Virus record (IMG/VR): IMGVR_UViG_3300036985_005342
Coordinates: 1 to 64,000 of that record
DNA from: a virus
DNA: 64,000 nt
Strand: one strand, 5' to 3'
Of this stretch, positions 213-63,256 are shown piece after piece. The notes below the pieces were generated by a model. The model saw nothing but the letters and a program-made list of their open reading frames with translations. It was not told the origin of the DNA and did no database searches. The position numbers and the translations under genes were made by a program. Within the stretch, counting starts at the first letter, position 1; the number at the start of each line of letters is the position of its first letter.

Positions 213-234
213 AACTACTAGATCCACAGTAGTT
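213..234. promoter_or_regulatory. 22-bp palindrome, site 1 of 8
   Basis: Arms AACTACTA and CAGTAGTT flank a 6-nt centre, matching AWCTACTA-N6-TAGTAGWT. The site lies just past the end of the leftward HTH gene at 248-871. It is one of the non-coding copies of the family. It is probably a protein-binding site, but its function is inferred only from symmetry and recurrence. Confidence 0.6.
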
Positions 235-247
235 CACCCGCTTTCCC

Positions 248-871
248 TTATTCTTCAACGGCTTCAAAGAAGCCCATCGGCGTAGCGTTTCGCATGTCCC
301 CGCCGTTCGCCGCCTCTTGCTGAGTCAATTTTTGCATCTCCAGCTTGGCCTTGCCCTTGGAAATTTCCTTAGCGCGGACGACCTCGATGTCCTTCAGATC
401 CACAATGCCCGAGAGCGTGGCGTGCTGCTTTTGTAAAGCTAAAAATTGCGACCGTAGGCTGGATTTTGTGCCGCTGGCGCGTTGCCAATCGTGGAAGATT
501 TGAATCGCCTTCTCAAACTCGTTTTCTCCACTGAATTTATCGAGCCAATCCTCCAATTTTTCAGTGATCGTGTCCATCGTATCTAGTTCATACTTAAGGA
601 CTTGCAACTGTTTTTCCAAGAAAACCATATTCGACTTGTGAAGATCCATCGTTTCCCTACTTAGGTTGAGAGCAAGGCCGGAACTTGATGCCCCCGACAA
701 GATCCCCTCGGCTTCCTTGAGCCATTGGGGCATCCTTTTCCTGATCGTCTCGATATGAAGCCCGGAAGCCTCGGCAAGTGCCTTTGCGTTCAGTATGCGC
801 CGACCATCCCCCGCCCCGTAGAGAAAGAGCTGCCGTGCTGTGTCCACCTCGAATTTTGTGCCTGCTGCCAT
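248..871 (-). CDS. HTH DNA-binding protein, possible small-terminase-like
   Basis: 207 residues. An N-terminal helix-turn-helix-like stretch (about residues 28-50, NAKALAEASGLHIETIRKRM) is followed by a long helical, coiled-coil-like middle (about 75-175) and a short tail. HTH plus helical oligomerisation region is the layout of small terminase subunits, but it also occurs in other phage DNA-binding proteins. The gene is far from the large terminase at 52.5-54.5 kb, so this assignment is a guess. It is transcribed leftward, away from the AT-rich control region at 872-1339. Real coding is well supported by the uninterrupted frame; the function is not. Confidence 0.65.
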   Translation of the reverse strand: MAAGTKFEVDTARQLFLYGAGDGRRILNAKALAEASGLHIETIRKRMPQWLKEAEGILSGASSSGLALNLSRETMDLHKSNMVFLEKQLQVLKYELDTMDTITEKLEDWLDKFSGENEFEKAIQIFHDWQRASGTKSSLRSQFLALQKQHATLSGIVDLKDIEVVRAKEISKGKAKLEMQKLTQQEAANGGDMRNATPMGFFEAVEE

Positions 872-1339
872 GCCGCTTTCTAACGATTCTCAGGATTTTG
901 TCCATAAAAATCGTCCAGACCTCCATCCCCTTTCTCATTTTTTAACGATTCACCGCTTCATTATTTTACGTCAAGTGGTTTTAGGATACAAATTTCGCTA
1001 ACTTAAACCCGCAAACCCTTGCGCCATAAACCCTCGTAAATTTTACCTAACCCTTTATAGCATTATAACCTATTAAGGGGGAGGTGCCCCCGCAGACGGA
1101 GACACGCTCTAAAAATCCAATAATTATTGACTTTCATCTTACCCCCCCCCTTAAATGATTATAATACAATATATATATAGATATATTTTTAGAGAGCAAT
1201 AAAATCAAGGGTTCCGGGACGAAAGTTAGCGAAATCTCAATCCTAATTTGAATTGACGAAAAATAATGCTCCCCATTTCCATAAAAAACGATAAAAACAG
1301 GCTTGACTCCGGCCTCAGACCCCACAAGCTGCTGCCGCT
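872..1339. promoter_or_regulatory. AT-rich divergent control region, candidate origin
   Basis: 468 bp without a gene, between a leftward gene (871) and a rightward operon (1340). It contains two TAACGATTC direct repeats (near 882 and 943), a GGGGG/CCCCC hairpin near 1076-1093, a run of nine Cs (1142-1150), a perfect TATAAT at 1160-1165 and an alternating AT tract (1166-1187). A long inverted repeat (981-1004 and 1223-1246) encloses these. It is far more AT-rich than its neighbours. It could be a replication origin or a divergent promoter region. No DnaA-box cluster was recognised. Confidence 0.55.
981..1246. repeat. 24-nt imperfect inverted repeat pair
   Basis: Left arm 981-1004 reads TTAGGAT-N4-ATTTCGCTAACTT. 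The reverse complement of the right arm, 1223-1246, has the same two blocks. 21 of 24 positions match and the inner 13 are identical. The arms bracket the AT-rich tract of the divergent control region. Confidence 0.75.
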
Positions 1340-1654
1340 ATGAATACAGAACCAACAATGCCAGCCGAAGCCCGTGAGAAGTATCTCCGGCTTCACCTAC
1401 ACCCCGAATTGCAAGCCGTCGCCCTCGCCAAGCATTACCTTGAAATGGCGAAACTTGCTCAACCCTTTCAAGACCTTGTGGACGAATGGCAGGCCGTTCG
1501 AGGCCGACCGAGAAAGCACAAGGGAAAATCCGTGGCACAGAGCCACGCCGAAGAGCAAATCGAAAAAGTCGTGGATCACATCAAGCTAAAGCACTTGGAA
1601 GATTTCGGCATCCCTCTCATCTGGAACAGAACCATCACCAACACCCCACAATGA
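1340..1654 (+). CDS. hypothetical protein, first gene of rightward early operon
   Basis: 104 residues, predicted largely helical, with a basic patch near the middle (GRPRKHKGK, about 54-62). No family recognised. The ATG at 1340 is preceded by GCTGCCGCT rather than a Shine-Dalgarno. The stop overlaps the next start (ATGA at 1651-1654), which indicates translational coupling with the following gene. Confidence 0.7.
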   Translation: MNTEPTMPAEAREKYLRLHLHPELQAVALAKHYLEMAKLAQPFQDLVDEWQAVRGRPRKHKGKSVAQSHAEEQIEKVVDHIKLKHLEDFGIPLIWNRTITNTPQ

Positions 1655-2760
1655 AAACACCAACACGCAAACCCCGCCAACGTATCAACGAAAAGCTCGG
1701 AGACTACAACGCCCGCCTCCGGGAATGGATAAAGGAAAACAACGCCTCCACCTACGCCATCCACCACGCAAGGCGCGGCGGAGAGCTATCCGAAGATGAA
1801 CAGGATCGCAACATCGAAGCCATCCGCGCCCGGATTGCCGACGAGCCGGATCTCCCGGTCAACCTCGCCCCATCCTACAAGCCCCACAAGCACGCCGAGG
1901 ACGAGCGCATGGAGGACTATGAGGCAGGGGACACCCCACAAGCCGCCCCCTTGGAGCTGGGGCACCTCCAGCACCAGCTCGCCGCCCTCACCGTGCGCGT
2001 GGTTGAGCTGGAAAAGCTCGTCGCCGCCTCGGTGGCCTACCGCTCGCTCAAACCCTCCGCAAAGGCCAAGGTGGACAAGATCGACCCCTCCGTCGGTGCC
2101 GCCTTCAAGGACAAGCGCACCCTCCTCGCCCTCACGGTCTTCGAGCATGTGGCCGAACTGCCCCGGAAGAAGAAAGTCGCCGCCAACTTCCCCAAGCTAC
2201 TTTTGGGCGAATACGTCGATTCCAGCGTGGACGAAACGGTCAACACCGTCCGCGTGATCCCATACACTGCCCTCCTGCACCGGCTCGCCGCCAAAAAGGA
2301 TTTCCGCCCGTCGCTGGATGAGACCTCCTCGCAGGACAATGCGCGCCGCGCCATCGAGAAGTCCGGCTTGATCGTCACCACGATGCACGAGGCCGGTATC
2401 CGGCAAGGCTCCGCTCTGCTCGTGGTCATGGATCGCACGGAAGCCGAGGCTTGTGGGCTGGTGCGAAAGAGCCGCGATGTGGAGATCCAGCCCGAGGACG
2501 AGCCGGAGATCCAGCCCGCCCCCACACCCAAGCAAAGCAACCCTAGATTCACCGAGTGGAACGAGCCTGAGCCAACTACTGAGGATGTAGTAGATGAACC
2601 AACTACTACGGATGTAGTAGGCGACGAAGAGATCGACACCGAGCCGTGGGAAGAAGAAGAAGATGACGGCTTCAACGACGACCCCATCGCCCTTTTTCAC
2701 GAGTCCGGGGAGCAGCAGAAAGCCGCGAAATCCTCGAAGGCTATTGACCTTTTCGCGTAA
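1651..2760 (+). CDS. hypothetical protein with acidic disordered tail
   Basis: 369 residues. A basic N-terminus is followed by a helical segment with a coiled-coil-like heptad (about 98-125) and a central globular region (about 130-275). The C-terminal tail is very acidic and looks disordered. The tail contains two copies of a TTxDVV peptide that are encoded by palindromes at 2574-2595 and 2601-2622. No known family recognised. The chosen ATG overlaps the previous stop; an in-frame extension upstream is only a readthrough of the preceding gene in another frame. Its position at the head of the early operon and its basic and acidic ends suggest a nucleic-acid-associated role, by inference only. 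Confidence 0.75.
   Translation: MKTPTRKPRQRINEKLGDYNARLREWIKENNASTYAIHHARRGGELSEDEQDRNIEAIRARIADEPDLPVNLAPSYKPHKHAEDERMEDYEAGDTPQAAPLELGHLQHQLAALTVRVVELEKLVAASVAYRSLKPSAKAKVDKIDPSVGAAFKDKRTLLALTVFEHVAELPRKKKVAANFPKLLLGEYVDSSVDETVNTVRVIPYTALLHRLAAKKDFRPSLDETSSQDNARRAIEKSGLIVTTMHEAGIRQGSALLVVMDRTEAEACGLVRKSRDVEIQPEDEPEIQPAPTPKQSNPRFTEWNEPEPTTEDVVDEPTTTDVVGDEEIDTEPWEEEEDDGFNDDPIALFHESGEQQKAAKSSKAIDLFA
2574..2622. promoter_or_regulatory. Paired 22-bp palindromes, sites 2 and 3 of 8
   Basis: Site 2 is 2574-2595 (arms AACTACTG/TAGTAGAT). Site 3 is 2601-2622 (arms AACTACTA/TAGTAGGC). Their centres are 27 bp apart. Both lie inside the acidic-tail codons of the upstream-operon protein and read there as TTEDVVD and TTTDVVG. 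Confidence 0.6.
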
Positions 2761-2783
2761 TCGAAAAATAAATTAAAATAAAG

Positions 2784-9168: not shown

Positions 9169-9197
9169 CCCTCTCCCCTTTCGGGGAGGGGGTTTTT
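9169..9197. terminator. Strong intrinsic terminator
   Basis: A 10-bp GC-rich stem (9169-9178 with 9183-9192, one G-U pair) with TTTC loop is followed by TTTTT on the + strand. It ends the rightward early operon. It abuts the stop of the leftward primase-helicase, so it may also serve that strand. Confidence 0.85.
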
Positions 9198-11461
9198 CAT
9201 TTCAACCTCTTGAGATCCACTGAGAGCAAGACCCCGCGCAATGTCAGAAAACTATCGACAGCAACATCGGGACTGACCTTGGAAAACACGCCAGACTTGC
9301 ACAATGATTCGACAGCTTTCTCGAAAGCGGTCACGGCACCAAGCCGGTCACTGGCAAAGCTAGAATTGTTGATTACAAACTTCTTGAGGACGTGGAGAGG
9401 TATGAGATTCGCCTCCGGCGCAGTCTTCCGGTTGAAGCCCATCTTGAGCCGGTCGGCATGTGGCAGTTTTGAGATCGTCTTGCACGCCTTCAGGATTTCA
9501 AGTTCCTGCTTTACTTGACCGGAACCGACCTCGCCTGTATCGAAGCGGGCTAGGATCGCAGCGTCAGTCTGCTCGACAAATCGGATCGCCCATAGGGCGT
9601 GTTCCTTGCGGATGAGGGGGGTGTGGAAATCCGCCGACACGGCGAGCAGGGTAGCGATACGGACAACCTTGAGACCGGCGCGGTTGATGACCTCCTTCTT
9701 GGCCAAGCCCTCGGAACAAGCCATGATCTCGGCGCGTTTCGTGTTTCGGTAGTCCCGGAGGATCTCGCTGGCTTCCTTCGAGGACGCGACCGAATCGTAG
9801 TGACCAGTAGCATCCGCCGTGTCCATCATCAGCGCAAGCTGCTCCAGACGCTCCACAAGCTCTTGTGGCGGCTTTGCGCCGTGCCGGGGGTTCTCTTCCA
9901 ACGACCAGCTCGAAAGCGGCACGTCGAGGAGAATGAAGCGTTGCAGGAATCCCGTGGCCAGTTCCCTTGTGGTCATCGACCCGTAGAGCGATTCCGGCGT
10001 GGCCTCCCCGGCTAAACTAAGGCAGGGACGCTCGATGCAAACCTTCTCGTCGCTTGAGTTGGCCTTGCGCCGACCTTCGGAGCTGCCGCCCTGTCCGGCA
10101 GAGTTGAAGGAGTTCAGCAACCCGCGTGAAAGGGTTTTCGTGTATTCCTGAGCGTTGGGGTTAGCAAGGTTCTTGAACGTGTCCCCGAACTCGGGGATGT
10201 ATGAAATGTAGCGGAAGGTATCTTGAAACACCGTTTCCAGACCCGGCCCGGAAACGATCTCGCCGCCAAAGATGCGCCGGATCGACGGGTTCTTCTTCGA
10301 GACCGCCGTGATGAGTCGCTTCATACCGTTCTGGTATTCATCCTTGCCGCAGGAAGTTCCACCCACGAGGACGAGCCACAGGTTGAGACCGGACTTCGTG
10401 GGGGTAAGAAAGCCGCGCCCCGCGATCCCACTCATCAACATGAGGGAGGCGAGAAGAGACGCTTCTTGGAGGGGCAGGTAGGATGTGGAGAATGAATACC
10501 GCGCCATGTCTTTGACCAAGCCGTCCGGTAAACTCTCGATCAGATTGTCGTTGCCCTTGGCGGGGATTACATCTACTACGTCCGTAGTAGTTTCCTCCGA
10601 GAAGTCAAGTTGAATCCGCTTATTCCGAGCCTCTTCGCGAGCTTGACTTGAACGGATTTTCCTGATTGTCCTGTTCACATACCCGTCGAAGCCGTGACCC
10701 GCTTTCTTTGCGGCACGCTCTTCATTCCACATGCCGGAGTGACCGAAAAACCATCTCACTTGATCGTTGGATTCGGTCAGATCGCAAAGCATCGCGATGA
10801 AAGCGTGGTCGGCTGTGGAGTGGTCGTTGTGAAACTCCTCGAACTGCTCCCAGCGTCCGCAGCATAGTTCGGAAAATTTCAGGAAACGGTCACAGCCCAT
10901 GTCGAAGACGGTCTGGTCGGGGATCTGGGACTTGTATTCCACAAGCTCGACCTCGGCGTGGCCGTGACCGCCACCGAGCCAAGTGTGGATCGACTGGAGA
11001 TCCGCATCATTTACTACGTTTATGGTAGATCGGCCATCTACTACGTCTCCAGTAAATAGGCAGAAGCGGTTTTCTTTGAAGAGACCTGCCGCAGGGAAAG
11101 CGGGGTGCTTGCCGGAGCCGTTGAAGTTCCCCTTGCAAATGACGTGGACACCATGACCGCCGACACTGCGCTGGGCGTATGAGGCGATACGCTCCAGAAC
11201 CCGTTGCTGGTCTTCGTCATCGGGATCGTCCAAGTCGATGAAGACGTAGGGGTCGGTCGAAGCAAAGCAGAAGCCAAGATGCTGCCGCTTGCCGGATTCC
11301 ACATCCTTCAACGCTGCGCGATAGGATCGCCAGTCGCGGGGGCGGTTGGATGCGGCCATCGAGTCTGTTCCGGGTGTGTAGGGGACTTTTCTTGCCTCCT
11401 CAACATCGAAACAGACCCACTGCTGGAGCTTCTTCAGCTCCTCGGGGATGTGGTCAAACAT
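9197..11461 (-). CDS. primase-helicase (AEP-like primase plus DUF3987-like ATPase)
   Basis: 754 residues. The N-terminal region (about 1-160) carries VFIDLDD (73-79) and SVGGHGVHV (about 99-107). These fit the metal-binding acidic pair and the nucleotide-site SxGGxGxH pattern of archaeo-eukaryotic primase/polymerase domains. The C-terminal region (about 320-620) has a Walker A-like GGTSCGKDE (about 362-370) and the general layout of DUF3987-type phage primase helicases. Likely role: priming and unwinding at the phage replication fork. It is the only large gene on the minus strand inside the rightward early half. Three of the 22-bp palindromes lie inside its coding sequence. It follows the small HTH gene with an 8-bp overlap. 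Confidence 0.8.
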   Translation of the reverse strand: MFDHIPEELKKLQQWVCFDVEEARKVPYTPGTDSMAASNRPRDWRSYRAALKDVESGKRQHLGFCFASTDPYVFIDLDDPDDEDQQRVLERIASYAQRSVGGHGVHVICKGNFNGSGKHPAFPAAGLFKENRFCLFTGDVVDGRSTINVVNDADLQSIHTWLGGGHGHAEVELVEYKSQIPDQTVFDMGCDRFLKFSELCCGRWEQFEEFHNDHSTADHAFIAMLCDLTESNDQVRWFFGHSGMWNEERAAKKAGHGFDGYVNRTIRKIRSSQAREEARNKRIQLDFSEETTTDVVDVIPAKGNDNLIESLPDGLVKDMARYSFSTSYLPLQEASLLASLMLMSGIAGRGFLTPTKSGLNLWLVLVGGTSCGKDEYQNGMKRLITAVSKKNPSIRRIFGGEIVSGPGLETVFQDTFRYISYIPEFGDTFKNLANPNAQEYTKTLSRGLLNSFNSAGQGGSSEGRRKANSSDEKVCIERPCLSLAGEATPESLYGSMTTRELATGFLQRFILLDVPLSSWSLEENPRHGAKPPQELVERLEQLALMMDTADATGHYDSVASSKEASEILRDYRNTKRAEIMACSEGLAKKEVINRAGLKVVRIATLLAVSADFHTPLIRKEHALWAIRFVEQTDAAILARFDTGEVGSGQVKQELEILKACKTISKLPHADRLKMGFNRKTAPEANLIPLHVLKKFVINNSSFASDRLGAVTAFEKAVESLCKSGVFSKVSPDVAVDSFLTLRGVLLSVDLKRLK
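10571..10592. promoter_or_regulatory. 22-bp palindrome, site 4 of 8
   Basis: Arms ATCTACTA and TAGTAGTT around CGTCCG; the inner CTACTAC/GTAGTAG arms are perfect. It lies inside the primase-helicase coding sequence, where the minus strand reads TTTDVVD. Confidence 0.6.
11009..11057. promoter_or_regulatory. Paired 22-bp palindromes, sites 5 and 6 of 8
   Basis: Site 5 is 11009-11030 (arms ATTTACTA/TGGTAGAT). Site 6 is 11036-11057 (arms ATCTACTA/CAGTAAAT). Centres are 27 bp apart, the same spacing as the pair at 2574-2622. Both lie in the primase domain codons. Confidence 0.6.
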
Positions 11462-11666
11462 TGTCGAGTGAGATAAAAGTTTTTCCTGTTAGCGCGATAG
11501 CGACTTTCTCCGCATCCTCGATGGACAACGGACGACCTTCCAGCTTCAAACTACGAAGGTTATAGTAGTTCACGTCGGCCTCTCGGGCGAGCGCGGAAAG
11601 GTTTACAGTGGGGTTTGAAATTTGTTCTCGCAGAGTCGCGAGAAGTAGGGTAGCGTTGGCAGACAT
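11454..11666 (-). CDS. small HTH regulator candidate
   Basis: 70 residues starting MSANATLLLATLRE. A helix-turn-helix-like core, NLSALAREADVNYYNLRSLKLE (about residues 22-43), is followed by a SIEDAEKVAIALTG helix, typical of short Xre/Cro-like or LacI-type DNA-binding folds. It overlaps the primase start by 8 bp and is transcribed with it. A 22-bp palindrome (11549-11570) falls inside this gene. It is a candidate for the protein that recognises the palindrome family, by proximity only. Confidence 0.65.
   Translation of the reverse strand: MSANATLLLATLREQISNPTVNLSALAREADVNYYNLRSLKLEGRPLSIEDAEKVAIALTGKTFISLDNV
11549..11570. promoter_or_regulatory. 22-bp palindrome, site 7 of 8
   Basis: Arms AACTACGA and TAGTAGTT. 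It lies in the HTH gene but in a different reading frame from the other coding copies (reads NYYNLRS), which argues for selection on DNA rather than peptide. Confidence 0.55.
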
Positions 11667-12189: not shown

Positions 12190-12574
12190 GGGGCTGTAAT
12201 GGTTTCGACACAACACGATAGAATACATAAGCAAGTAGAGGTTGATCGGATGGCCTCTTTAAAAATCCGATCAAAACAAATAAAAGCAGACTCCAACGAG
12301 TTCGCTCCTTCCCTTGAGGAAGCCAACGCAATCCTCTCCTTCCACGGTTTCGTGGAGCGTGAGCTTGCCGCAGCCTGAAAGGTGAGGACACAACGCTCTC
12401 CGATACGCCCGCGCTACGGAGAGAAACAAACCGGGCAACCAACGCAACTCAGCGGCGTAAAGACTGAGTGGTGGAAGGTCGCCTAACCAGCGTCCCCAAT
12501 GTCCGAAAGGACTAAGCTTGTAGAAAATGTATTTAACAGTGTTGTGAACGCGGGTTCGATCCCCGCCAGCTCCA
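12190..12574 (+). ncRNA. ssrA: transfer-messenger RNA
   Basis: The 5' end GGGGCTGTAATGG and 3' end CCAGCTCCA form a 7-bp acceptor stem with a G-U at the third pair, the alanine-identity signature. The T arm is GCGGG-TTCGATC-CCCGC (12550-12566). A 10-bp PK1-like stem (12242-12251 with 12265-12274) lies 11 nt before the resume codon GCA at 12286. The tag frame runs 12286-12378 and encodes 30 residues, starting ADSNEF and ending ERELAAA before TGA. A P2 helix (AATACAT/ATGTATT) and a GNRA hairpin (GTCC-GAAA-GGAC) are also present. It acts in ribosome rescue, charged with Ala. CCA is not encoded (the discriminator A is followed by AAA). It is phage-borne; the tag is much longer than the usual roughly 10 residues. 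Confidence 0.96.
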
Positions 12575-12580
12575 AAAGTC

Positions 12581-13095: not shown

Positions 13096-13117
13096 ACTTT
13101 CCAACAGTAAACATAAA

Positions 13118-13200
13118 GGGATCTCAGGATGAGAAGCGCAAAATAAGTTGATGTCGCGCAAACATCGACGTTAGGGTTAGTTCGATTCTAACCCGTCCCA
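13118..13200 (+). other. tRNA-like element, possibly degenerate
   Basis: A canonical T arm GTTAG-TTCGATT-CTAAC (13176-13192) is followed by CCGTCCC and a discriminator-like A at 13200. The 5' GGGAT at 13118 pairs with five bases of that strand, leaving two mismatches. An 8-bp hairpin GTTGATGT/ACATCGAC with a 7-nt loop (13147-13169) occupies the anticodon or variable-arm position, but base 33 is not U. I cannot make a full canonical tRNA, so this is a remnant or unusual RNA. Confidence 0.3.
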
Positions 13201-13233
13201 CCTCTCTCAGCAACAATTAAGAAAACAACAACC

Positions 13234-21895: not shown

Positions 21896-22093
21896 ATGTT
21901 TGGCTACTCCGACGAATTTCTAGGCACAGTTACGCCGCCTCTTTCCCGCGACAAGGCGGTTGTGGTCGCCGCGATCCTGAAGCATTCGATCAGCTACCCG
22001 CACCATGAGGAGATCAAGGTGTCGGTCGATTCGGGGAACCGGATGCTGTGGCTGAACGGGATTCTCTATACGTTCAAGGAGCTGGGGTTTTAG
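21896..22093 (+). CDS. small hypothetical protein
   Basis: 65 residues, predicted soluble. No family recognised. It is the last gene of the rightward module and overlaps the giant leftward gene's stop by 4 bp. The ATG was chosen at 21896; upstream in-frame residues belong to the HNH gene in another frame. Confidence 0.55.
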   Translation: MFGYSDEFLGTVTPPLSRDKAVVVAAILKHSISYPHHEEIKVSVDSGNRMLWLNGILYTFKELGF

Positions 22094-25000
22094 AACCTGA
22101 TCCAGTTGTATTCAGGCTCTTTCTTCTCGGTCTTTTCCCAAGGTGTCCGCACACCCACACCGAAGAACAGGGCTGTGGCCAGCACTGAGCCGTCACGGAC
22201 TCCATGCGTCTCGAAGATGTTCACCAGATCCTCGACGATGATCGGTTCCAAAAGTTGACGGGTGAAGCTGGTTGGGGTCATTGCGATGTCGCCAAAATGC
22301 TTCTGGGTGATTGTGTCGAGGATCATCGCCATGTTGATGTTCTCGCGGTTCCTCACGAAGTCGTAGAGAGAATCGCGGAAGTCCTGCTTGCCGAAACCGA
22401 TGGAGCCTTCCCCACGGAGCGGGATGACCTCTCCCTTGGAGTTCAGCTTGTAGCCCATGATGCCCTGCGCCAGCAGGTTGATGTAGGGGCGCATACCGCC
22501 GCCGAGGTCGATCATGGTGCCCTTGTAACTGATCCCGCCGAACTTGCCGGATGTGGGGTTCCACACGATGTCTTCCTCCTCATCGTCCGGCGTGATGGCA
22601 CGCACGATGCCCACGATGACCGTGCCGAGGATAGCGCGGCCTACAATGGCCTTTCCATAAACATCGGCAGCGACGGTTGCCCGGATCTTCATCGTGCCGT
22701 CAAAACTCGCTCTGCGCGTCCAGATCGGCTCAAGGGCATTCATCTTGGCGCGGCTGACCGCCCACCGAGCCGAGATCGTCACCGTGTTGGCAAGGGCGAG
22801 GCCAGCATCGAGGCTGGGATTTTTGAGCGAACCACGGCCAGTCGCGTTCATCACGGCGTTGCCGATGATTGCAAGCTCATCCTTCGAGGGGTTGCCTTCG
22901 TCGCGGATTCCCTTCTCGATGAGCGTGTCGGCCATCTGGGCGCGGGTGAGGTTCGTGACGATGCGGTTGAAGCGTTCCACACCGAGGCCAAGCTCAGTGA
23001 CCCAGCGGAGGGGGATGAACTTCGGCAGCTTCTTGTTGATGGTCTCCATCAGCTCGGGGTCGATTGCATCGGCCTCCTGCATTCTGTCGAGATCGGCGAA
23101 GGGACTCATAAACCGGAGATCCATTCGCTTATCGTAAACGGAGTTGGGACGGTCGATGACATCGTTGTAGTAAGCGATCTCCTTGTCGCGGCTGAACATG
23201 CCGGAGAAAGCCTTCGCAAAGGTTGTGGTGACTTTGATCGGATTGGCCCAAGCGCGGAGCGTGTAGAAGTAGGCTTGGCGCATACCAATACCAAGCTCGA
23301 AGCCAAGCGTGGTGATCTTGCGGAGCTTGAATGCCCCGCCGACGTAGTGCCAGAAACGCTGGCTCGCGCTCATGTTAGCGATGGCATATTTCCGACCTTC
23401 CTCCAACCATTCGGCCTTTGCTTTCGCCTCGTCGATCTTGGTCTGGGTGAGTCGGGAATCCTCTTTGGTGTCCCGCTTCACGGCCTTCGCGAAGTCGCCA
23501 GCGGCCAAACGCCTCTCGTAATTTTCCTTGCGTTTCTTCGACGCGGCGATCATGCGCTGGATGCGCTTCTCTTCAGGGCTGGTAGGCTTGAGCGCATCTT
23601 TCTTGAGCTGGTCGAGGGTTGCACGCAGGCTAACCACAGTGGCCTTGAGGTTGCGAACTGCCGGGTCGGTGGACTCGGGCTTTTTGGCACGCTTCGAGAA
23701 GTCGCGCTTGGCGATCCGTGCGTTGAGGTCGGCGATGGTCTTGTTGAGCTGCACGATGGCACGCCTGCGGGCGATCACTTCTGGCGGGGTCAGGATGCGA
23801 CGATCCTTCTGGATCTCGCGCACGGTGTCGCGGAGACGGTCACGGGTAGCCATCATCTCTTTCAACACGCTGTTGAGGGTCGGAGCCACGCCCTTAGCTG
23901 TGGGTGGGTAGGTGCCATTTTTGATGAAATACTCGAAGCGTTCGATGGACTTATTAACCGAATCGTAAAGTCGATTTGTTGCGATCTCAGCGGCGGTCTT
24001 CTTGGGGTTGCGGGCTTCCTGCGCGATGCGCTTGGCCTCACGGAGGGATTCCAGACGCTCGCGCTTCGCCTTTAGCTCAGGGCTGTCCAGCTTGACCTTC
24101 GTAGGCTTGTCGAGGATCTCACCGCGCATCTCCGCTTCCAGCAGGTTGATCTGGCGGTCGAGCATCTTGGAAGCGCGTTTGATCTGCGCTTCGAGGGAGA
24201 TTTTCTTGCTGTCGATGCCGAAGATCGCCCTGTATTCTACCAGCATTTCATCACGACGTTTTTTAAGATCGTCGAGGATTGGATCTGTCACCGGATCACG
24301 CTTAGGGCGGTCGATGCGGATACGTTCATCAATCGCATATTTCATGTCCCTGAGTTGATTCTCAAGTTGCCGCTTGATAGCGTCACGCGCACCTGCAAGG
24401 CGGGTCTTCTTATCTTGCTCCTCGGTGTAGTTCATCCCTGCGTCAATCATCGCCTGCTTGATCTGCTTCATCAATGAGCGGACGGGCGATGTGGTTGGGT
24501 CACGAGGAAGTCCCGTCTTCTTGGGGAAGAAACCTTTGGCGATGTCAAGGAGTTGTGCCCCGAGACGTTCAACAACTTTGAGTTCGCGGATGTCAACTTT
24601 GAGTTGCTCCTGAGAGACATTCTTGACCCGCCCATAATTTGTGAACGCAACCACAACCTCTTCGCGGGTGAGGTTTGGGTAATCGTTCTGGAGGAGCTTG
24701 GTGACAGCGTCCAGCACTGCTTCACCTTTGAGACCTTGGCGCATGAAGCCGAGGGCCATATTATAGACCATCTTTTCACTGATACCCTTACTTGGGTCGA
24801 TGAGCGAGGAAAGCTCCTGCGGGGTCTTCTGGCGTGCCGTCGAGGCCAACTTCGCCAGCTTGTCCTTGGCCAATCCGAAGACTGTTTCGGCCTGATCGCG
24901 AAACTCCTCACCGAACTCACTCACGAGCTTCTCGGTGAACGCTTCAATGGTCTTGGCATTACCGGCGAGGTATTCCGTGCCCACGTCCGAGAGCGCGTCG

Positions 25001-32523: not shown

Positions 32524-32531
32524 GAGTGTTT

Positions 32532-33719
32532 TTACCGCAATTCGGGAACATTCCAAGGACTATTTGAAGGGGGTGTGGTCGTCGATCCAGTCATCCCGAA
32601 CTTCTTCTGCGCGTAATTCCATACGCGTTTACGTGCAGCTTTTCCAGCCGGACTGAGGCCGGGAACCTTGTTGACATACTCATTTTCTTCCATGTTGGAA
32701 GCAGATGTCAGCTCGTTTGACACCTTATCTTTTTCGTAAAGTTTGGCTTCTTCAACTTGCTGAGATGTTGGATTCTTTCCAACGGGAGGAGGGAAGAAGG
32801 TCTTGTTGTCAAACAGTCCCAATGTTTCTTTTTCCTCTGCTGTGGTCGAAGGTGCCTTTGGCGCATCAGGTTTCGCAGTAAGGCGCATCTCCTCATCCTT
32901 CAGCTCTTGGCTTCTGACTTCAGCGTTGACCCGCGCCTCGCCTTGGAGAGCAGGGTCTTTCAAGTCCATTTCCACTCTTGCACGCTCCTCGCGAGTTTTA
33001 CGAAGATTGTCGGGTGCCGGAGTTTCCGCAGGACTGAGCATATCAGCGGAGGACGGAACCTGCCGGGGCAATCTTGGGTTTTGATCTTCCACATCAGCTA
33101 TGATGTTTTTAGACCGAGTATCGGCGGCATTATCTTTGACACCGAACAGGTTACGGGCACCTATCATATTACCCTCATCGCGCTTGAGTTTTTCGTTCGC
33201 CACGATCTCAGGATTGTTAATTGGCGTTCCTGTTCCTGTTCCTGTTCCTGTTCCTGTTCCTGTCCCATCACCATACCGCTCACCGAACCGCAGTAAATCC
33301 TCCGCACGCTTACGCTTTTCCTCTTCAGCCGCAGCTTGCTCAGACTCAAATTGAGACTCAAGCAGTCCCATTTTCCGGCTCTGGATGTCCCGAGAAAAAG
33401 CATCATTGGCAGAAATTCTTGATTGTGTCTGCTGATCCAAACCATACCGGCGATCCGACTCGAAGGCGGAGCGGTTGAAACGCATGGCATCTTCCATGTC
33501 CTGCTGCGTGTTCTCGGCCCTGCGCTGCATCAGGTTTGTCTCCTGCTGACGCATGGCGAAAAGGTCCCGTTCCTGTGCGAGCTGCTTGTCGGCCATCGAA
33601 CGCCCGAGCGAAATCGCTTGGTTCATAATGCTGCTAATTGCCTCGGGACCGGCACGCAGAAGACCCTCAATGGAGTTCGAGCCATTGTTCTGAAACATCT
33701 GGATTGGTGATAGAGCCAT
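32532..33719 (-). CDS. internal virion-like protein with Gly-Thr linker
   Basis: 395 residues. A strongly helical, glutamine-rich coiled-coil N-terminal half (about 30-150) is followed by a GTGTGTGT linker (about 152-164, from six GTTCCT units at 33226-33267) and a charged C-terminal half. It lies just upstream of the giant protein and could be a co-injected core protein. No family recognised. Confidence 0.65.
   Translation of the reverse strand: MALSPIQMFQNNGSNSIEGLLRAGPEAISSIMNQAISLGRSMADKQLAQERDLFAMRQQETNLMQRRAENTQQDMEDAMRFNRSAFESDRRYGLDQQTQSRISANDAFSRDIQSRKMGLLESQFESEQAAAEEEKRKRAEDLLRFGERYGDGTGTGTGTGTGTGTPINNPEIVANEKLKRDEGNMIGARNLFGVKDNAADTRSKNIIADVEDQNPRLPRQVPSSADMLSPAETPAPDNLRKTREERARVEMDLKDPALQGEARVNAEVRSQELKDEEMRLTAKPDAPKAPSTTAEEKETLGLFDNKTFFPPPVGKNPTSQQVEEAKLYEKDKVSNELTSASNMEENEYVNKVPGLSPAGKAARKRVWNYAQKKFGMTGSTTTPPSNSPWNVPELR
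33226..33267. repeat. GTTCCT tandem hexamer microsatellite
   Basis: Six perfect GTTCCT units plus a degenerate seventh. It encodes the Gly-Thr linker of the leftward gene. Copy-number changes keep the reading frame. Confidence 0.85.
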
Positions 33720-39740: not shown

Positions 39741-41945
39741 TTAAGGCGCAGAATAAATTCTAAATGTCATCGTTCCCTCGTTATCATCATAAAGTAGGTC
39801 GTAGAAATAGAAACAATAATCACCTGCCTTGTCTGCATCGACTGTGAAGGTTTTGGGACTCATCGCTTCAGCACTCTCTGTTGCCGCCGCCTCTGTTTCT
39901 GCTGCACCAGTAACAAATACCCCTCTCCGAGGACCATCCGGCAACAATCTTATGTAAAGAGCAACTATGTATTTCGGAAGTATGCTGTCATCGGGTCGAA
40001 ATTGAGCCACACCAGAAATATATTCACAAATATAGTCCCCCGCTGGGAGCGTGAAAGTTGAGGCACACGCGGATGTTGTGGCATTTAACGTAATCGTTTC
40101 ATCGAAGCTGGAGCCAGAGCTGGAGCCAGAGCCAGAGCCAGAGCCAGAGCCGGAGCCGGAGCTGGAGCCGGAGCTGGAGCCGCATCCTGTGCAAGGTCCG
40201 AAGGTGTATTCAATGCCCCCGTAAGTAATTGGGCCGGTGTTTGGACAGTCAACACTATCATACCACATGGCTTCTCCCTCCGCCCCAACTGGACCCACAC
40301 TCAAATACCAGTCTCCTTCGTCACGGATCAAAACAACACCCTGATCCAGAACAAGGTCGTAGTAAGAATAAGCATCATTTTGTGGCGAATAATTCATTTC
40401 AGCACACACTTCCTCCCCGGTGCCGGGGCGTATGTAATTGATCTGAACACAACAAGGAGATCCAGAGCTGGAGCTAGAGCTGGAGCTGGAGCTGGAGCTG
40501 GAGCCGGAGCTGGAGCCGCATCCTGTGCAAGGTCCGAAGGTGTATTCAATGCCCCCGTAAGTAATTGGGCCGGTGTTTGGACAGTCAACACTATCATACC
40601 ACATGGCTTCTCCCCCATCCACAGATAAATACCAATCTCCTTCGTCGAGGGTGAGTGTAATATCTTCAAATGTGTAAACCCCGTCGGCAAACGTCATCTC
40701 AGCACAAACTTCCTCCCCGGTGTCGGGGCGTGTGAAATTGATCTGAACACAACAAGTAGAGCCAGAGCTGGAGCTGGAGCTACCGCCACCGCCGCCGCTA
40801 GTTGAGCCGGAGCCGGAGCTGGAGCCAGAGCCGGAGCTGGAGCCGGAGCTGGAGCCAGAGCCGGAGCCAGAGCCGGAGCTGGAGCTGGAGCCAGAGCCGG
40901 AGCCAGAGCCAGAGCCGGAGCCAGAGCCGGAGCTGGAGCTGGAGCCGGAGCCAGAGCCGGAGCTGGAGCTGGAGCCAGAGCCGGAGCTGGAGCTGGAGCC
41001 GGAGCCAGAGCCGGAGCTGGAGCTGGAGCCAGAGCCTGAGCCTGAGCCGGAGCCGGAGCAGGAGCTGGAGCTGGAGCCAGAGCCGGAGCTGGAGCTGGAG
41101 CTGGAGCTGTAATCAGGATCTTTGCAAAGCAATACAAGAATGTCTCTTTCCCCGCCAACAAGAAGTTGGGGGTCAACACAGGTATCGAACTCATATTCCA
41201 CACCTTCTCCGGTGATGACAAATGGGACATCCTCGGCGGGAAGATAGCCGAGTTTCCTGACATCGTAATTGTAGGAGCGCGAAACTGGATTTAACGAAAA
41301 GCGGCCCTCGTCATCGCCCATTCCCGAATATGCTCTGTGGTTGTTGTGGCGGATCTCCCACAGAGGCTCGGGGATCGGTTCGCGTGTGTCGCAGTCAAGA
41401 ACGAGGAAACGAAGCTCGATCCCGCTTTCAGGGAAGCCAATCTCGCACTCAGGAATATCAGCGACGGGTGCCACATATTCAATCTCCTTGATGGGTGTCT
41501 CGCTCTCAACCCAATCGACTTCGTTCATGCCGGGGCTACGTGTTAGGGTCATACCATCCCACCAAAACGTATCGCAATTCGGGCTTTGAAACACGAGATA
41601 GTTCTCGGCTTGGAAAACGTGGACATCCTCGCAACATCCAAGTGATTCACCGAGAGGGTGACAACCAAGGATCGGAACCCCATCGACCACAACGGCAATA
41701 CCGGAAAGTGCCTGCGAGAGAGGTGCGGCGGAGATCCCCCGGCGCGGGCGGAAACTGGCAGCTCCGTTGAACTGACCTACGGCACCAGTAGTAGTATAGA
41801 CAAATCCGGGGCGTGTCTTGACCACGCCCTCATCGAAGACAAGATTGGTAGCCGAGTGAACCCTCCGCTTTTCCCCTACAAGAAGCGGGCTGGACTTCAT
41901 GTCCACACCTTGCGTCCCGAGCTGGATGATGTTGATTTTAGGCAT
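39741..41945 (-). CDS. Ser-Gly-repeat virion protein with duplicated Cys domains
   Basis: 734 residues from ATG 41945 (a GTG at 41966 is possible). N-terminal segment (about 1-170) [15 protein letters not shown]...[14 protein letters not shown] resembles nozzle-type tail proteins. Next comes a carboxypeptidase-regulatory-like region (about 180-265). A long Ser-Gly linker (about 278-390) follows. Two related Cys-rich domains (about 397-477 and 495-588), each ending [14 protein letters not shown], are separated by Ser-Gly linkers. A C-terminal domain (about 614-734) ends the protein. Probably surface-exposed. The Ser linkers sit next to two GT25 genes. Confidence 0.75.
40165..40614. repeat. 114-bp exact direct repeat
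   Basis: 40165-40278 and 40501-40614 are identical over 114 bp (336-bp offset). They encode the shared end of the two Cys domains and part of the Ser-Gly linkers. Recent duplication or gene conversion within the virion gene. Confidence 0.85.
40805..41109. repeat. AGCCGG/AGCTGG low-complexity array encoding Ser-Gly
   Basis: About 300 bp of hexamer-like units made of AGCCGG, AGCTGG and AGCCAG. The minus strand reads as alternating Ser/Gly. Similar short arrays occur at 40107-40181 and 40462-40514. The opposite strand gives a spurious Arg/Ser-rich open frame. Confidence 0.9.
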
Positions 41946-51808: not shown

Positions 51809-52536
51809 AGGTTCTTAGCGGCGTATTGGTCAAAATTTCCATCAAACAGTCCGAGATCGTTTATGGTCGCCCACAACCACTGCCTTGCGGCTTCGACGGT
51901 GTAGGTCGGTATGTCGGATAAGTTTTCAAGGTTTAGGATGATCTTTTGGAAGTCGGAAGAGGTCCCCGAAAACGGGGATTTCTCGGGACTATAAAGGTCC
52001 TTGACAACTTCCGCAAGCATAATGAATCGACCGTAACTGAACCGGCTAGGAGCAACGCAAAGGTAGAGTTCAAGCAAGGACCACAATGAGCGTTGGGTCG
52101 CTGTGTCGAAGGGTCGTGTCTTGGTGTGAGGGTCGGATGACTTCTGGTATTTGATCGGAATGGCGACGGACATAAGCGTGAAAAGGTCAATCCTGCGGTA
52201 TTTCTTCGGCACCCGCTGGAGCCATTGAATGTTCAGGTTGAGCCACAGGTCGGCGCGGGTGTAGTCGATGAGGTTAAGGTCAAAGTTCCGTGCGACATTC
52301 TGGTAAACGATCTCGGCTGTCGCCCCCTCGAAATGCGTCTGGATTGAATTAACGAAGAAGTCCACACCCCATCCACCGAAAGGGCTGTGTGGTTTCTTGG
52401 CAATGGGTTGGGAGAGATCAACGATCTTGCCGAACCTGTCGCTAATAGGCTGGGCTTCAGGTTCCAACTGGTAGTTCAGCCCCGAGTGCCCCATCGAGAT
52501 AGGGGCTTTGATTTTGTTGCATGTTTGGCAGCTCAT
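51799..52536 (-). CDS. hypothetical protein between terminase and portal
   Basis: 245 residues, soluble, helical. Starts MSCQTCNKIKAP (CxxC), like the MSCNCNQ start of another late gene. Sequence has no catalytic motif. It could be a portal-associated or packaging-accessory protein, by context. Confidence 0.5.
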   Translation of the reverse strand: MSCQTCNKIKAPISMGHSGLNYQLEPEAQPISDRFGKIVDLSQPIAKKPHSPFGGWGVDFFVNSIQTHFEGATAEIVYQNVARNFDLNLIDYTRADLWLNLNIQWLQRVPKKYRRIDLFTLMSVAIPIKYQKSSDPHTKTRPFDTATQRSLWSLLELYLCVAPSRFSYGRFIMLAEVVKDLYSPEKSPFSGTSSDFQKIILNLENLSDIPTYTVEAARQWLWATINDLGLFDGNFDQYAAKNLWT

Positions 52537-54536
52537 ATTTTCTTGATGATACGGCTTTTACCCAGACCTTTCTTTTCAAGCAAGCTCCAAAGTGACTCGC
52601 TGCGCTTTCCGTTCGTTACAGTTTTTGCTCGGAATCCGACACGTTGAAGTAACCCTGAGATCCCCATTAGAACGTCTCGATCATCTGGCGATACTTGCTG
52701 CCAGCGAGCCTTGTATTCCTTCTTGCCTTCGGAGACGTATTTCTTGTTGACAGTCTCATAAAGCGTCCGGCTGAGTTGAATGACAGCAGTTTCAATGTTG
52801 CTGCCACCACGAACCTGCTTAGTTAGAAATAGGTCACTCGCGAGGAAAGCAAGTTCCGTGCATCGGTTTTTACAACAATCCTCGCTGTTCTTTTTGATGT
52901 TCTGGAGAAAGACACCTTCTGGGGCTTGATTGTAATCGAAAGCGTGGATGGAGTAGCCGAGCATCCGAGTCATCGACGAGACAATATCCGGCCTCATCGA
53001 GAAGTCATACCCGAAGTGAGAAGGTTTGATTCCGTGCGCGAGATTTAGTTCAGCGCACTGGATAGCAATCTGATCCTCGTAGGAAACCATTCCTCCGATA
53101 GTGAAGCCAGAGGTCTCGACCCTTGCCGCACGCATTCTACCGAACCAGTAGTCGTTGTAGGTGGCATCCTTGACCAACTTGAGGGTCTTGAAGAAGTCCT
53201 TGAAAAGAACGACTTCCTGTGTTTCGTCATTGCCGTTGGCATCAGTGACCTTGGCGATCCCGTATTGCGCGTAGCCCCACTTCGACTTGTCGCGTCCTCC
53301 GAAAGCAGGGTCGCAAAAGGAAACTGCACCGTCGATGCGGATCATGGTAAAGTATGGGTCCTTGTAGCGGGAGGACGAGAGCTTGGCCTTCGAGAGGACT
53401 GAGTTCATGTCGTCGCCCCGCGCCGGGAACGAACGCACCTGAGAATAGTAGTCCGGCGACTGCTCGCCGTAATCATCGAGCATCTGCTGGAGGTTTGACT
53501 GCTTGAAGAGCTTGGGGTAGAGGGTCTTGCCCGAGAGAATGTTCGGCGACTTGTGGCCATCGAAGCGAAGCGTGATCGAAGAGGCTTCGCTGTGCCACCA
53601 AGCATGTTCTTCGATGTCGAGATCATCGAAGGAAGCGGGACCCCCGTAAGTTGGTTTCGGACTGGTGAGCCTACCGCCCATGTCATCCTCGTTTTTGAAG
53701 TTCTGGGATGTGATGGCGAAGAACGCATCCTGCTGCGAGATGTTTGCCAGTGTGGTCAGGAAGGCCATGTTCTCGATCTCGTTGACCTCATCGACCACAA
53801 TAAGCATCACGCCACGGTCGGTGTCCTTACCCCGAGTTTTTGATCCCTTGTATTTTCCAACATGCTTGGTGTTCCGCAGCTCGATCCTCGCGGCTTTCGG
53901 AATGTTGGGCATGAACTCAAGGCAGCGGTTGGCGTATTTTCGACCGTAAGGAAACAGCACGGAGGCATCTCCGAATCCTTGTCCGGTCGTGTTCGGGTGG
54001 GCTTCGCAGAGTTGATCCCACAGCTCTTCAATGTCGCCCCACACGGTCGAATCGGAAGCGGAGTCGAAGGGGTTGGCGACATAGACAACCGTGTATTCTG
54101 GGTCAATATACATCAGGGCAAAGGCGATGCGGCAACCGGAAGCGGATTTGCCTGAGTTTGCGCTACCGATGAGATTGAGTATTTTTTTGTTGGCTCCTCC
54201 AATACCCCGACAAAAAAACATCACAGCATCCGCAAGGGACGGTGTGATGTCTGTTTCTGGAAACAGTAATTTTATCAGTGTGAGAAAGTGCTGGTAATAC
54301 GGTTTGCCATGCTTTGAAAGACCGCCCCAGTTTGGACGCTTGGCCTCGAAAAGGATTTCACGCTCGATCTCCCACGGTTTCTTGTCCGGTTGAAGGACCC
54401 AGTATTTGCGGGGGCTGTTGCCGATCAGGGTGGAACTGATGCGGTCAGCCGTCAGGTTTTGGTCCGACCAGTCGAGCCGGTCGTGATTGAGAACGATCCC
54501 CTCGAAGGGATCTTTCCTGACTTCCTCTTCGATCAT
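52533..54536 (-). CDS. large terminase subunit
   Basis: 667 residues from ATG 54536. Walker A LIGSANSGKSAS (about 119-130), Walker B GVMLIVVDEVNEI (about 250-262), and a coupling-type FFAITSQNF (about 277-285). A C-terminal nuclease domain begins with GAVSFCDPAFGGRDKSKWG (about 398-416), supplying the first catalytic Asp. Packages DNA into the prohead through the portal. Near-complete motif set. Confidence 0.93.
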   Translation of the reverse strand: MIEEEVRKDPFEGIVLNHDRLDWSDQNLTADRISSTLIGNSPRKYWVLQPDKKPWEIEREILFEAKRPNWGGLSKHGKPYYQHFLTLIKLLFPETDITPSLADAVMFFCRGIGGANKKILNLIGSANSGKSASGCRIAFALMYIDPEYTVVYVANPFDSASDSTVWGDIEELWDQLCEAHPNTTGQGFGDASVLFPYGRKYANRCLEFMPNIPKAARIELRNTKHVGKYKGSKTRGKDTDRGVMLIVVDEVNEIENMAFLTTLANISQQDAFFAITSQNFKNEDDMGGRLTSPKPTYGGPASFDDLDIEEHAWWHSEASSITLRFDGHKSPNILSGKTLYPKLFKQSNLQQMLDDYGEQSPDYYSQVRSFPARGDDMNSVLSKAKLSSSRYKDPYFTMIRIDGAVSFCDPAFGGRDKSKWGYAQYGIAKVTDANGNDETQEVVLFKDFFKTLKLVKDATYNDYWFGRMRAARVETSGFTIGGMVSYEDQIAIQCAELNLAHGIKPSHFGYDFSMRPDIVSSMTRMLGYSIHAFDYNQAPEGVFLQNIKKNSEDCCKNRCTELAFLASDLFLTKQVRGGSNIETAVIQLSRTLYETVNKKYVSEGKKEYKARWQQVSPDDRDVLMGISGLLQRVGFRAKTVTNGKRSESLWSLLEKKGLGKSRIIKKI

Positions 54537-55000
54537 CAAGCCTTGGCCAGCTCGGCGAGCTGCTTCAGTTTGGCGACGGGGACCCCGAGATGCTCGGCGG
54601 TATCAGGCAGCTTGTTGAGCTGGTAGAGGTCGATGGTCGTGATCTCACCGCGAAGGAGGATGTTGACCAGCTCCTTTGGCTCCTTGACCACAAGGGTAGT
54701 CTTGCCGGGTTTCTCCTTGGAGATTTCCAGCTCGGTGACGAGGCCGGTGATTGCGTCCTTGAGGAAGAAGCGTTGTTCGATCACGGGGTCGGGTTCCGGC
54801 TCAGGAGCCTTGGCGGCAGCGGGCTTTTTCTTCTTCGGTCCGAAGTCATCCGGGTAGGTCGTCTTCAGTGCCGCGATGTAACCTGTCATTACGCTCTCGT
54901 CCTCGGTGGCGAGGAAAGCGAGAATGTCGTCAGCTTCAGTGGAGCCGCCATTGAGGAAGTAATCCCGGAGGTCGGCTAGTTTATTTTTGTTGATGTCCAT
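54536..55000 (-). CDS. hypothetical protein, small-terminase candidate
   Basis: 154 residues. A helical N-terminal part, a basic proline-rich linker (KKKKPAAAKAPEPEPDP) and a C-terminal domain. Immediately upstream of TerL with a 1-bp overlap, the usual place for a small terminase or packaging accessory. No HTH is obvious. Confidence 0.45.
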   Translation of the reverse strand: MDINKNKLADLRDYFLNGGSTEADDILAFLATEDESVMTGYIAALKTTYPDDFGPKKKKPAAAKAPEPEPDPVIEQRFFLKDAITGLVTELEISKEKPGKTTLVVKEPKELVNILLRGEITTIDLYQLNKLPDTAEHLGVPVAKLKQLAELAKA

Positions 55001-61314: not shown

Positions 61315-61315
61315 A

Positions 61316-61519
61316 TTACTTTCCCAAAAGATCTTCCCACGAACAGCCCAGCGCACGGCGTAATTTGCGTAACGCTGTGGTGGATGGCTCGCGGCGGTAG
61401 TTCTCGTAGTGCGAGACCGTGCCGGGGCCAAAACCACAGACATGCTCCAGATGCTTCTGGGTGATCCCCATTGCAATCCGCACGCGATGGAGCTGGTCTC
61501 CGAATGTGGTGTTGTTCAT
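61316..61519 (-). CDS. XRE-family HTH regulator
   Basis: 67 residues from ATG 61519. Core FGDQLHRVRIAMGITQKHLEHVCGFGPGTVSHYENYRREPS (described by residues 5-45) is the classical XRE helix-turn-helix, with GxxxxTxxxYE spacing. Likely a small phage regulator of the accessory/late operon. ATGA overlap with the ACP gene upstream. Confidence 0.8.
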   Translation of the reverse strand: MNNTTFGDQLHRVRIAMGITQKHLEHVCGFGPGTVSHYENYRREPSTTALRKLRRALGCSWEDLLGK

Positions 61520-61746
61520 GCTATCTGTTTTTCGATCTGGCTCACCAGCTCGGCGATAGTGGTAGGCCACACGTTCTCGATGTCAATCTCAATCCCAAGA
61601 CGTTGACCGACCTCGATCACAAAACGTGTGATGTCAAGGCTGTCCATGTTCAACTCTTGGAAGGTGACGTTCGGATCGAAGGGGTCTTCGCCTTGGATGA
61701 AAGCGTTTTCCTCCAGCACTTCTTGGATGACTTTGATGACGTTCAT
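61516..61746 (-). CDS. acyl carrier protein
   Basis: 76 residues. The core ELNMDSLDITRFVIEVGQRLGIEI (residues about 31-54), with DSL motif and Ser36 as the phosphopantetheine attachment site, is diagnostic of an ACP; the length (76) is normal. In the cell it would need a host holo-ACP synthase and accepts acyl chains. No acyltransferase or synthase partner is seen in this window. Phage-encoded ACPs are uncommon; the role is unknown (lipid or host-factor engagement). Confidence 0.93.
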   Translation of the reverse strand: MNVIKVIQEVLEENAFIQGEDPFDPNVTFQELNMDSLDITRFVIEVGQRLGIEIDIENVWPTTIAELVSQIEKQIA

Positions 61747-61931: not shown

Positions 61932-61938
61932 AGAGTTG

Positions 61939-62049: not shown

Positions 62050-62053
62050 AGAT

Positions 62054-62842: not shown

Positions 62843-62852
62843 GTCGGGGGCA

Positions 62853-62881
62853 GTCGTAGGCTGGGCATACGGATGTGTCAA
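62853..62881 (-). promoter_or_regulatory. sigma70-like promoter TTGACA-N17-TACGAC
   Basis: Minus strand TTGACA (62876-62881), 17-bp spacer and TACGAC (62853-62858). It lies 11 bp before the first gene of the leftward operon (62842) and probably drives the first part of the long late strand. Confidence 0.65.
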
Positions 62882-63026
62882 GAAAAAAGTTTGACGGGTT
62901 GGTATAGTGGGGTAGTTGACGGATACGTCAGGTAGGGGTCGATTGAGAAAATCGAGATTCTGTATTTGTGCGCCCACCGCTGGCGACCTCCCGCGCTGGC
63001 GATTCTGCCCGGGAAGCCCCCCCACC

Positions 63027-63113
63027 GGTGCCCGTGCCGGTGCCGGGGAACCTTCAACCCACCCCATACCCCCCGCCCCGGTGCCGGTGCCCGCCGGTGC
63101 CGGTGCCCGGTGC
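63027..63113. repeat. GGTGCC-rich tandem repeats
   Basis: Runs of GGTGCC/GTGCCG/CCGGTGCC units in a non-coding divergent region, similar in style to 1-92. A further GTGCCGGTGCC lies at 63268-63278. Function unknown; possible terminal or intergenic repeat family. Confidence 0.75.
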
Positions 63114-63128
63114 CCGCTTCAATCCAAA

Positions 63129-63256
63129 GATTGAAACGCTTGTTTCAATCAAATGACATACGACAAAATTGTCGCATGTTCTATTTACTAGAAACGTAGT
63201 AAATGGACGCATGAAATACGACAAAATTGTCGCATGTTGGTATCTGAAAATAAAAT
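63129..63256. promoter_or_regulatory. Palindrome-dense operator region
   Basis: A perfect 22-nt hairpin GATTGAAAC/GTTTCAATC (63129-63150). Two exact 23-bp direct repeats (63158-63180 and 63216-63238), each with CGACAAAATTGTCG. The 22-bp palindrome, site 8 (63183-63204, arms ATTTACTA/TAGTAAAT). A + strand promoter-like TTGTCG-N18-TAAAAT (63227-63256). The arrangement is that of a multi-operator switch for divergent transcription. Confidence 0.65.

What the first reader, a model, noticed from the sequence alone, without database searches (positions are those of the whole stretch)
213..63204. A dispersed 22-bp palindrome family (8 copies)
The motif AWCTACTA-N6-TAGTAGWT occurs at 213-234, 2574-2595, 2601-2622, 10571-10592, 11009-11030, 11036-11057, 11549-11570 and 63183-63204. 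Copies sit in non-coding DNA at both ends, in two operons and in coding DNA of both strands. This repetition with conserved arms and variable centre is what a dedicated DNA-binding protein or a replication/segregation element would leave. None of the gene calls explains it.
Basis: seen in the sequence. Interest (0 to 1): 0.85.

Follow-up and report, generated by a model that had tools for sequence, protein, structure and literature searches.

The report
Eight palindromic protein-binding sites in phage
A virus of (probably) Verrucomicrobiota bacteria carries eight near-identical mirror-image DNA sites, most of them written into its genes with rare codons, which almost certainly mark where an as yet unidentified protein grips the early, replication end of its genome; sets of such sites are known in other phages and plasmids, but this motif and its binder are new.

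Summary
All eight sites are at the stated coordinates (8 found, 0.11 expected in shuffles). With a matrix built from the other seven, each site scores 21-31 bits, while no other place in the genome exceeds 11. In the five coding sites read in one frame, the rare Val codon GTA (8% of Val codons) occurs twice in a row every time, so selection acts on the DNA, not the protein. The arms do not covary, which argues for a DNA site rather than an RNA hairpin. The record closes to a circle of about 64.5 kb, so the sites 'at both ends' are 1.6 kb apart, and all eight fall in one 13-kb early/replication arc. Two pairs in unrelated genes are both spaced exactly 27 bp. The motif is not conserved: the only colinear relative found (primase 57%, terminase 73% identical) has no copy. 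The tmRNA gene and terminase relatives point to a Verrucomicrobiota host. Best reading: operator or roadblock sites of a dimeric HTH repressor-type protein, shown as sites, inferred as repression; the binder is unknown. No ParA, ParB, integrase or BlaI gene was found. A single host locus carries a tandem pair of the same palindrome over the start of a BlaI-family repressor gene.

The parts
213..234 (.). site 1, AACTACTAGATCCACAGTAGTT, non-coding, just beyond the stop of the 248-871(-) gene
2574..2595 (.). site 2, in the 3' part of the 1651-2760(+) gene (encodes PTTEDVVD); first of a 27-bp pair
2601..2622 (.). site 3, same gene (PTTTDVVG); second of a 27-bp pair
10571..10592 (.). site 4, only perfect consensus match, in a variable linker of the primase gene
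11009..11030 (.). site 5, in the primase gene; first of a 27-bp pair
11036..11057 (.). site 6, written into the conserved TGDVV motif of the primase; second of a 27-bp pair
11549..11570 (.). site 7, inside the small HTH gene upstream of the primase
63183..63204 (.). site 8, in the intergenic region between the leftward 62054-62842 gene and the rightward 63234 gene; identical in the near-clonal contig G001
63156..63177 (.). a different palindrome, CATACGACAAAATTGTCGCATG, first copy flanking site 8
63214..63235 (.). second copy of the different palindrome; overlaps a weak promoter-like match at 63227-63256
248..871 (-). 207-aa protein with predicted N-terminal HTH and helical tail; no detectable relatives; candidate binder (unproven)
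1651..2760 (+). 369-aa protein with acidic tail that carries sites 2 and 3; no detectable relatives; candidate binder (weak)
9197..11461 (-). DNA primase/helicase (phrog_3022, DUF3987), gene that carries sites 4-6
11454..11666 (-). small HTH protein co-encoded with the primase in many phages; carries site 7; candidate binder (unproven)
61316..61519 (-). HTH_3 (Cro/C1-type) regulator, conserved in G010, which lacks the motif

Best explanation
The eight 22-bp palindromes (AWYTACTRNR-NN-YNYAGTARWT) are binding sites of one sequence-specific dimeric DNA-binding protein, most likely a helix-turn-helix repressor. SHOWN: they are one family, far above chance, under selection at the DNA level, palindromic without RNA-type covariation, and confined to the early/replication arc. 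INFERRED: two dimers bind cooperatively at the 27-bp pairs; the site in the 63.2-kb intergenic region acts as a promoter operator; the intragenic sites (primase operon, HTH gene, 1651-2760 gene) act as roadblocks or silencing nucleation points that shut off early and replication transcription ('stoperator' or KorB-like logic). The binder is probably encoded in the variable accessory arc (about 61.7 kb through 0 to 6.6 kb), because the colinear relative, in which that arc was not found, also lacks the sites; the 207-aa HTH protein at 248-871 is the first candidate.
For: Eight sites against 0.11 expected. Leave-one-out scores 21-31 bits against at most 11 elsewhere. De novo discovery ranks it first. 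GTA is 8% of Val codons, yet GTA GTA occurs in all five coding sites of that frame, and the chance of the synonymous choices per site is 1.7e-7 to 3.7e-6. The relative G010 encodes the conserved primase stretch with other codons (GTG ATC instead of GTA GTA). Arm mismatch within sites (1.38) is close to that between sites (1.64), permutation p = 0.27, so there is no covariation. Information content is 24.9 bits, more than the 13 needed to find 8 sites in the phage alone, as expected if the protein must also ignore the host chromosome. Eight sites within one fifth of a circle has probability about 8 x 0.2^7 = 1e-4, or 2e-3 if pairs count once. Two unrelated pairs share 27-bp spacing. A tandem pair of the same palindrome overlaps the start of a repressor gene in a Verrucomicrobiota genome.
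Against: Most sites are far from any recognisable promoter. No binder is identified, and the 207-aa candidate has no family match and only a low-confidence model. No integrase was found in the proteins scanned, so a lysogeny repressor is not obviously needed. The motif is absent from the only colinear relative.
Confidence: 0.5

Rival explanations
1. Centromere-like partition or clamp-loading sites (as in N15 or the KorB operators of RK2): the protein loads at dispersed palindromes and serves segregation of a plasmid-like prophage, and perhaps long-range silencing.
For: Scattered inverted repeats in early and replication genes, some paired. Centromere/operator inverted repeats are known to be found either at one locus or scattered across a genome (PMC5016525), and KorB silences promoters from operators kilobases away together with a second operator near the promoter (PMC11790492). 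Here site 8 is flanked by two copies of another palindrome. The genome closes to a circle and no integrase was seen.
Against: No ParA-type ATPase: the only Walker-A motifs with a plausible context are in the Sak4-like and terminase proteins. No ParB family match among the proteins scanned.
Confidence: 0.15
2. Sites of a host regulator (for example a BlaI-family repressor) that the phage has taken over or must titrate.
For: In Verrucomicrobiota genome G931 two tandem copies (22.8 and 17.6 bits) overlap the start of a gene matching Penicillinase_R (PF03965, E 1.2e-23), followed by a membrane-protease-like gene. The host phylum is probably Verrucomicrobiota.
Against: Thirty strong BlaI loci of the same order show no comparable match (best 7.8 bits); several have the canonical CTACANNTGTAG-type element instead. 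In 240 genomes the motif is only slightly commoner than its control, by my count of the table about 43 against 28. The phage has no BlaI gene.
Confidence: 0.13
3. Replication-initiator or packaging-recognition sites of the phage.
For: The arc holds the primase operon, an AT-rich non-coding stretch at about 1100-1290 with inverted repeats at 959-1268, and an HTH protein with a helical tail reminiscent of small terminases.
Against: The sites are spread over 13 kb and not clustered at the AT-rich stretch. The skew follows transcription, not a clear origin. The terminase large subunit lies about 9 kb outside the arc.
Confidence: 0.1
4. Recombinase core sites or remnants of a mobile palindromic element.
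For: Inverted arms around a 6-bp centre look like a tyrosine-recombinase core.
Against: All eight centres differ, so strand exchange between sites would be blocked. The sites arose in place in conserved codons, without insertion in the primase alignment at the TGDVV site. No integrase was found.
Confidence: 0.04

Closest known systems
Stoperators of Cluster A mycobacteriophages (L5, Bxb1)
   Same: Many copies of one repressor site over a phage genome, most not at promoters, thought to block elongation (PMC6550527).
   Different: Those are 13-14 bp, lack dyad symmetry, are bound by a monomer, are oriented with transcription and number 20-30; these are 22-bp palindromes, eight, confined to one arc, partly in 27-bp pairs.
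KorB operators (OB) of plasmid RK2/RP4
   Same: Dispersed palindromic sites for a dimer; a site can act kilobases from the promoter, with a second operator near the promoter (PMC11790492).
   Different: No ParB/KorB or ParA/IncC homologue found here; different sequence; most sites inside coding DNA.
Scattered inverted-repeat centromeres of linear plasmid-prophage N15
   Same: Inverted repeats scattered over a prophage genome (PMC5016525).
   Different: No SopA/SopB-like genes detected; different sequence.
BlaI/MecI/CopY operators (TACANNTGTA)
   Same: CTAC/GTAG half-sites; tandem palindromes over the repressor start; one matching host example.
   Different: Half-sites here are TAC-N10-GTA, not TAC-N4-GTA; no BlaI gene in the phage.

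Membership tests
L5-type stoperators | asymmetric 13-14 bp site, oriented with transcription | tested here: not met
   sites are dyad-symmetric over 22 bp; definition from PMC6550527
L5-type stoperators | multiple sites away from promoters | tested here: met
   six of eight sites lie inside genes
L5-type stoperators | cognate repressor that confers immunity | not testable with these tools
   binder unidentified; needs experiment
KorB/ParB-type operators or parS | ParB-fold binding protein in the element | tested here: inconclusive
   no family match in the ORFs scanned; two candidates have no relatives
KorB/ParB-type operators or parS | ParA-type ATPase (partition) | tested here: not met
   Walker-A scan of the listed genes finds only Sak4-like, terminase and spurious matches
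KorB/ParB-type operators or parS | dispersed inverted repeats | tested here: met
BlaI/MecI/CopY operator | TACANNTGTA core | tested here: not met
   TAC and GTA are 10 bp apart, not 4
BlaI/MecI/CopY operator | Penicillinase_R repressor in the genome | tested here: not met
   profile of 31 BlaI proteins against all six-frame ORFs of the phage: nothing significant
Tyrosine-recombinase core sites | identical overlap region between partner sites | tested here: not met
   eight different centres
RNA hairpin or terminator family | compensatory changes between arms | tested here: not met
   no covariation, p = 0.27; Rfam finds only the tmRNA in the window

The most novel reading that the evidence does not exclude
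A new type of phage silencing or segregation system: a protein without detectable relatives loads on palindromic sites written into the replication genes of a Verrucomicrobiota phage, without a ParA partner, and controls the early arc over kilobases.
Probability: 0.12. Interest if true: 0.75.

Novelty: new member of a known kind. Interest (0 to 1): 0.45.

Why it matters
Regulation of Verrucomicrobiota phages is, to my knowledge, almost unstudied. A clean eight-site family with strong codon-level selection gives a direct handle: the motif can serve as bait to fish out the binder, which has no recognisable family. If the sites act as intragenic roadblocks, they would show that stoperator-like control arose with palindromic sites in an unrelated phage lineage.

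Tried and rejected
Close relatives by DNA: none in the phage collection. Motif scan of viral contigs: the hits are mostly AT-rich contigs with one or two sites, consistent with chance. Tandem-pair pattern in viral and genome contigs: hits are other coding repeats or isolated. Other overrepresented palindromes (for example TCACCGA-N5-TCGGTGA) looked stronger in a simple count but fail the leave-one-out test, so they reflect codon structure. Two motif neighbours shared between host genomes (mnmG, and an FAD-protein gene) looked like a lead; position and centre differ between genomes, so I treat them as chance or local hairpins. Relatives of the 248-871 and 1651-2760 proteins: none in the collections searched. 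Structure models of both: low confidence (pLDDT 58 and 43), and the fold search for the first gave best E 0.5, uninformative. Terminase search in 388 Verrucomicrobiota and 399 Pseudomonadota genomes with a single sequence found nothing; with a two-sequence profile it found two distant relatives in Verrucomicrobiota.

Full report
WHAT WAS CHECKED. Because a reader could have picked the best of many palindromes by eye, I tested the family by leave-one-out: for each site a weight matrix was built from the other seven and scanned over the whole record. Every site scores 20.9-31.1 bits, and no other place exceeds 11.0. An unbiased search over palindromes with 8-bp arms and gaps of 0-14 bp puts this family first, with all eight members 10-20.5 bits above background. 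Palindromes that look commoner in a simple count collapse in the same test.

ANATOMY. The consensus is AWYTACTRNR-NN-YNYAGTARWT: arms of 8 bp, and a 6-bp centre that differs in all eight sites except for purine at position 10 and pyrimidine at position 13. The information content is about 25 bits, whereas finding eight sites in 64.6 kb needs only 13; the surplus is what one expects if the recogniser must also tell the phage from a host chromosome (inference). Two pairs, 2574/2601 and 11009/11036, lie in unrelated genes and are both spaced 27 bp.

GENOME CONTEXT. The window is 64,000 of 64,657 bases of a virus record. Its end repeats its start, and an independent, nearly identical contig (G001) reads through the junction, so the genome is circular or terminally redundant and the 'two ends' are adjacent. 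Site 63183 and site 213 are about 1.57 kb apart, and all eight sites lie in about 13 kb. Eight random points would fall in one fifth of a circle with probability about 8 x 0.2^7, or 1e-4; counting the pairs once gives about 2e-3. The arc carries orphan early genes, a primase operon and an AT-rich non-coding stretch; the rest carries polymerase, helicase and recombination genes, a giant polyvalent protein, the terminase (52533-54539, assigned from its Walker A/B-type motifs by eye; no PDB sequence match) and presumed structural genes, without a single site.

SELECTION ACTS ON THE DNA. Six sites are in coding DNA. In five of them the frame requires two consecutive Val codons in the right arm, and all ten are GTA, a codon used for 8% of Val in this genome; the chance of the observed synonymous choices is 1.7e-7 to 3.7e-6 per site. 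One site is written into the primase motif TGDVV; the relative G010 encodes TGDVI there with different codons, and other sites fall where the amino acids differ from relatives. The sites thus arose in place and were not inserted. Arms of one site are no more complementary to each other than to arms of other sites (p = 0.27), which argues against an RNA hairpin. Rfam finds nothing at the sites.

RELATIVES. The replication module resembles that of Pseudomonas, Stenotrophomonas, Vibrio and Escherichia phages (about 27-46% identity), including a small HTH gene directly upstream of the primase. The only colinear relative found is G010 (57 kb; primase 57%, terminase 73%). It has no site within three mismatches and no palindrome family of its own. 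No homologues were found in its contig for most of the accessory arc (about 61.7 kb through zero to 6.6 kb), including 248-871 and 1651-2760; the contig may simply end there. The sites in the conserved primase and HTH genes are nevertheless absent. The simplest inference is that binder and sites came together with the accessory arc. This lowers the odds for the 61316-61519 and 11454-11666 proteins, which G010 keeps, although their specificity could have changed.

HOST. The phage encodes a tmRNA whose best matches, up to 87% over 75 bases, are in Verrucomicrobiota and not in Pseudomonadota; distant terminase relatives occur in two Verrucomicrobiota assemblies. In 240 genomes of one order the motif is only slightly commoner than its control, about 43 against 28 by my count. 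One locus stands out: in G931 two tandem copies overlap the start of a BlaI-family repressor gene. Other BlaI loci of the order show the canonical TACANNTGTA-type element instead, and the phage has no BlaI gene. I keep this as a lead: it suggests that the palindrome can serve as a repressor operator, not that BlaI binds the phage.

INTERPRETATION. Sequence-specific binding by a dimeric protein is, in my judgement, about 90% likely. What the binding does is inference. I favour repression of the early/replication arc, with one promoter-region operator (site 63183, flanked by two copies of another palindrome) and intragenic sites that block or nucleate silencing. Known parallels are the L5 stoperators (asymmetric, oriented, 20-30 sites; PMC6550527) and the KorB operators of RK2 (palindromic, dispersed, acting over kilobases; PMC11790492). 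Neither membership test is passed: the sites are symmetric, and no ParA partner was found. Partition, a host regulator, replication or packaging, and recombination remain as rivals in that order.

LIMITS. The binder is unknown; single-sequence structure models were poor. Not every small ORF was scanned against the family libraries.

Noticed in passing
12190-12577 (+): Complete phage-encoded tmRNA gene (Rfam RF00023, 127.8 bits) with an unusually long predicted tag, ADSNEFAPSLEEANAILSFHGFVERELAAA; best matches in Verrucomicrobiota.
   Followed up: partly
63156-63177 and 63214-63235: Two copies of another near-palindrome, CATACGACAAAATTGTCGCATG (second copy AATACG...), flank site 63183 and occur nowhere else in the window; perhaps operators of the HTH_3 regulator.
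   Followed up: partly
22090-32556 (-): Giant 3488-aa ORF with DUF7178 and a weak ART-PolyVal match (polyvalent protein).
   Followed up: no
40106-41107: Long hexanucleotide-repeat region (GAGCCG and related units, up to about 50 copies) inside the 39741-41966 gene.
   Followed up: no
1-100 and 63000-63115: GGTGCC-rich simple repeats next to the circular junction, which may explain the contig ends there.
   Followed up: partly
61516-61746 (-): Small ORF that reads like an acyl carrier protein (by eye, not searched).
   Followed up: no
959-1021 and 1206-1268: 63-nt imperfect inverted repeat around an AT-rich non-coding stretch; possible origin or regulatory region.
   Followed up: no
about 13110-13202: tRNA-like 3' end (GGTTAGTTCGATTCTAACC) in non-coding DNA that ARAGORN does not call.
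   Followed up: no
L288:3170-3214: In a Verrucomicrobiota genome, a tandem pair of the same palindrome overlaps the start of a BlaI-family repressor gene, with TAC-N10-GTA spacing instead of the canonical N4.
   Followed up: partly
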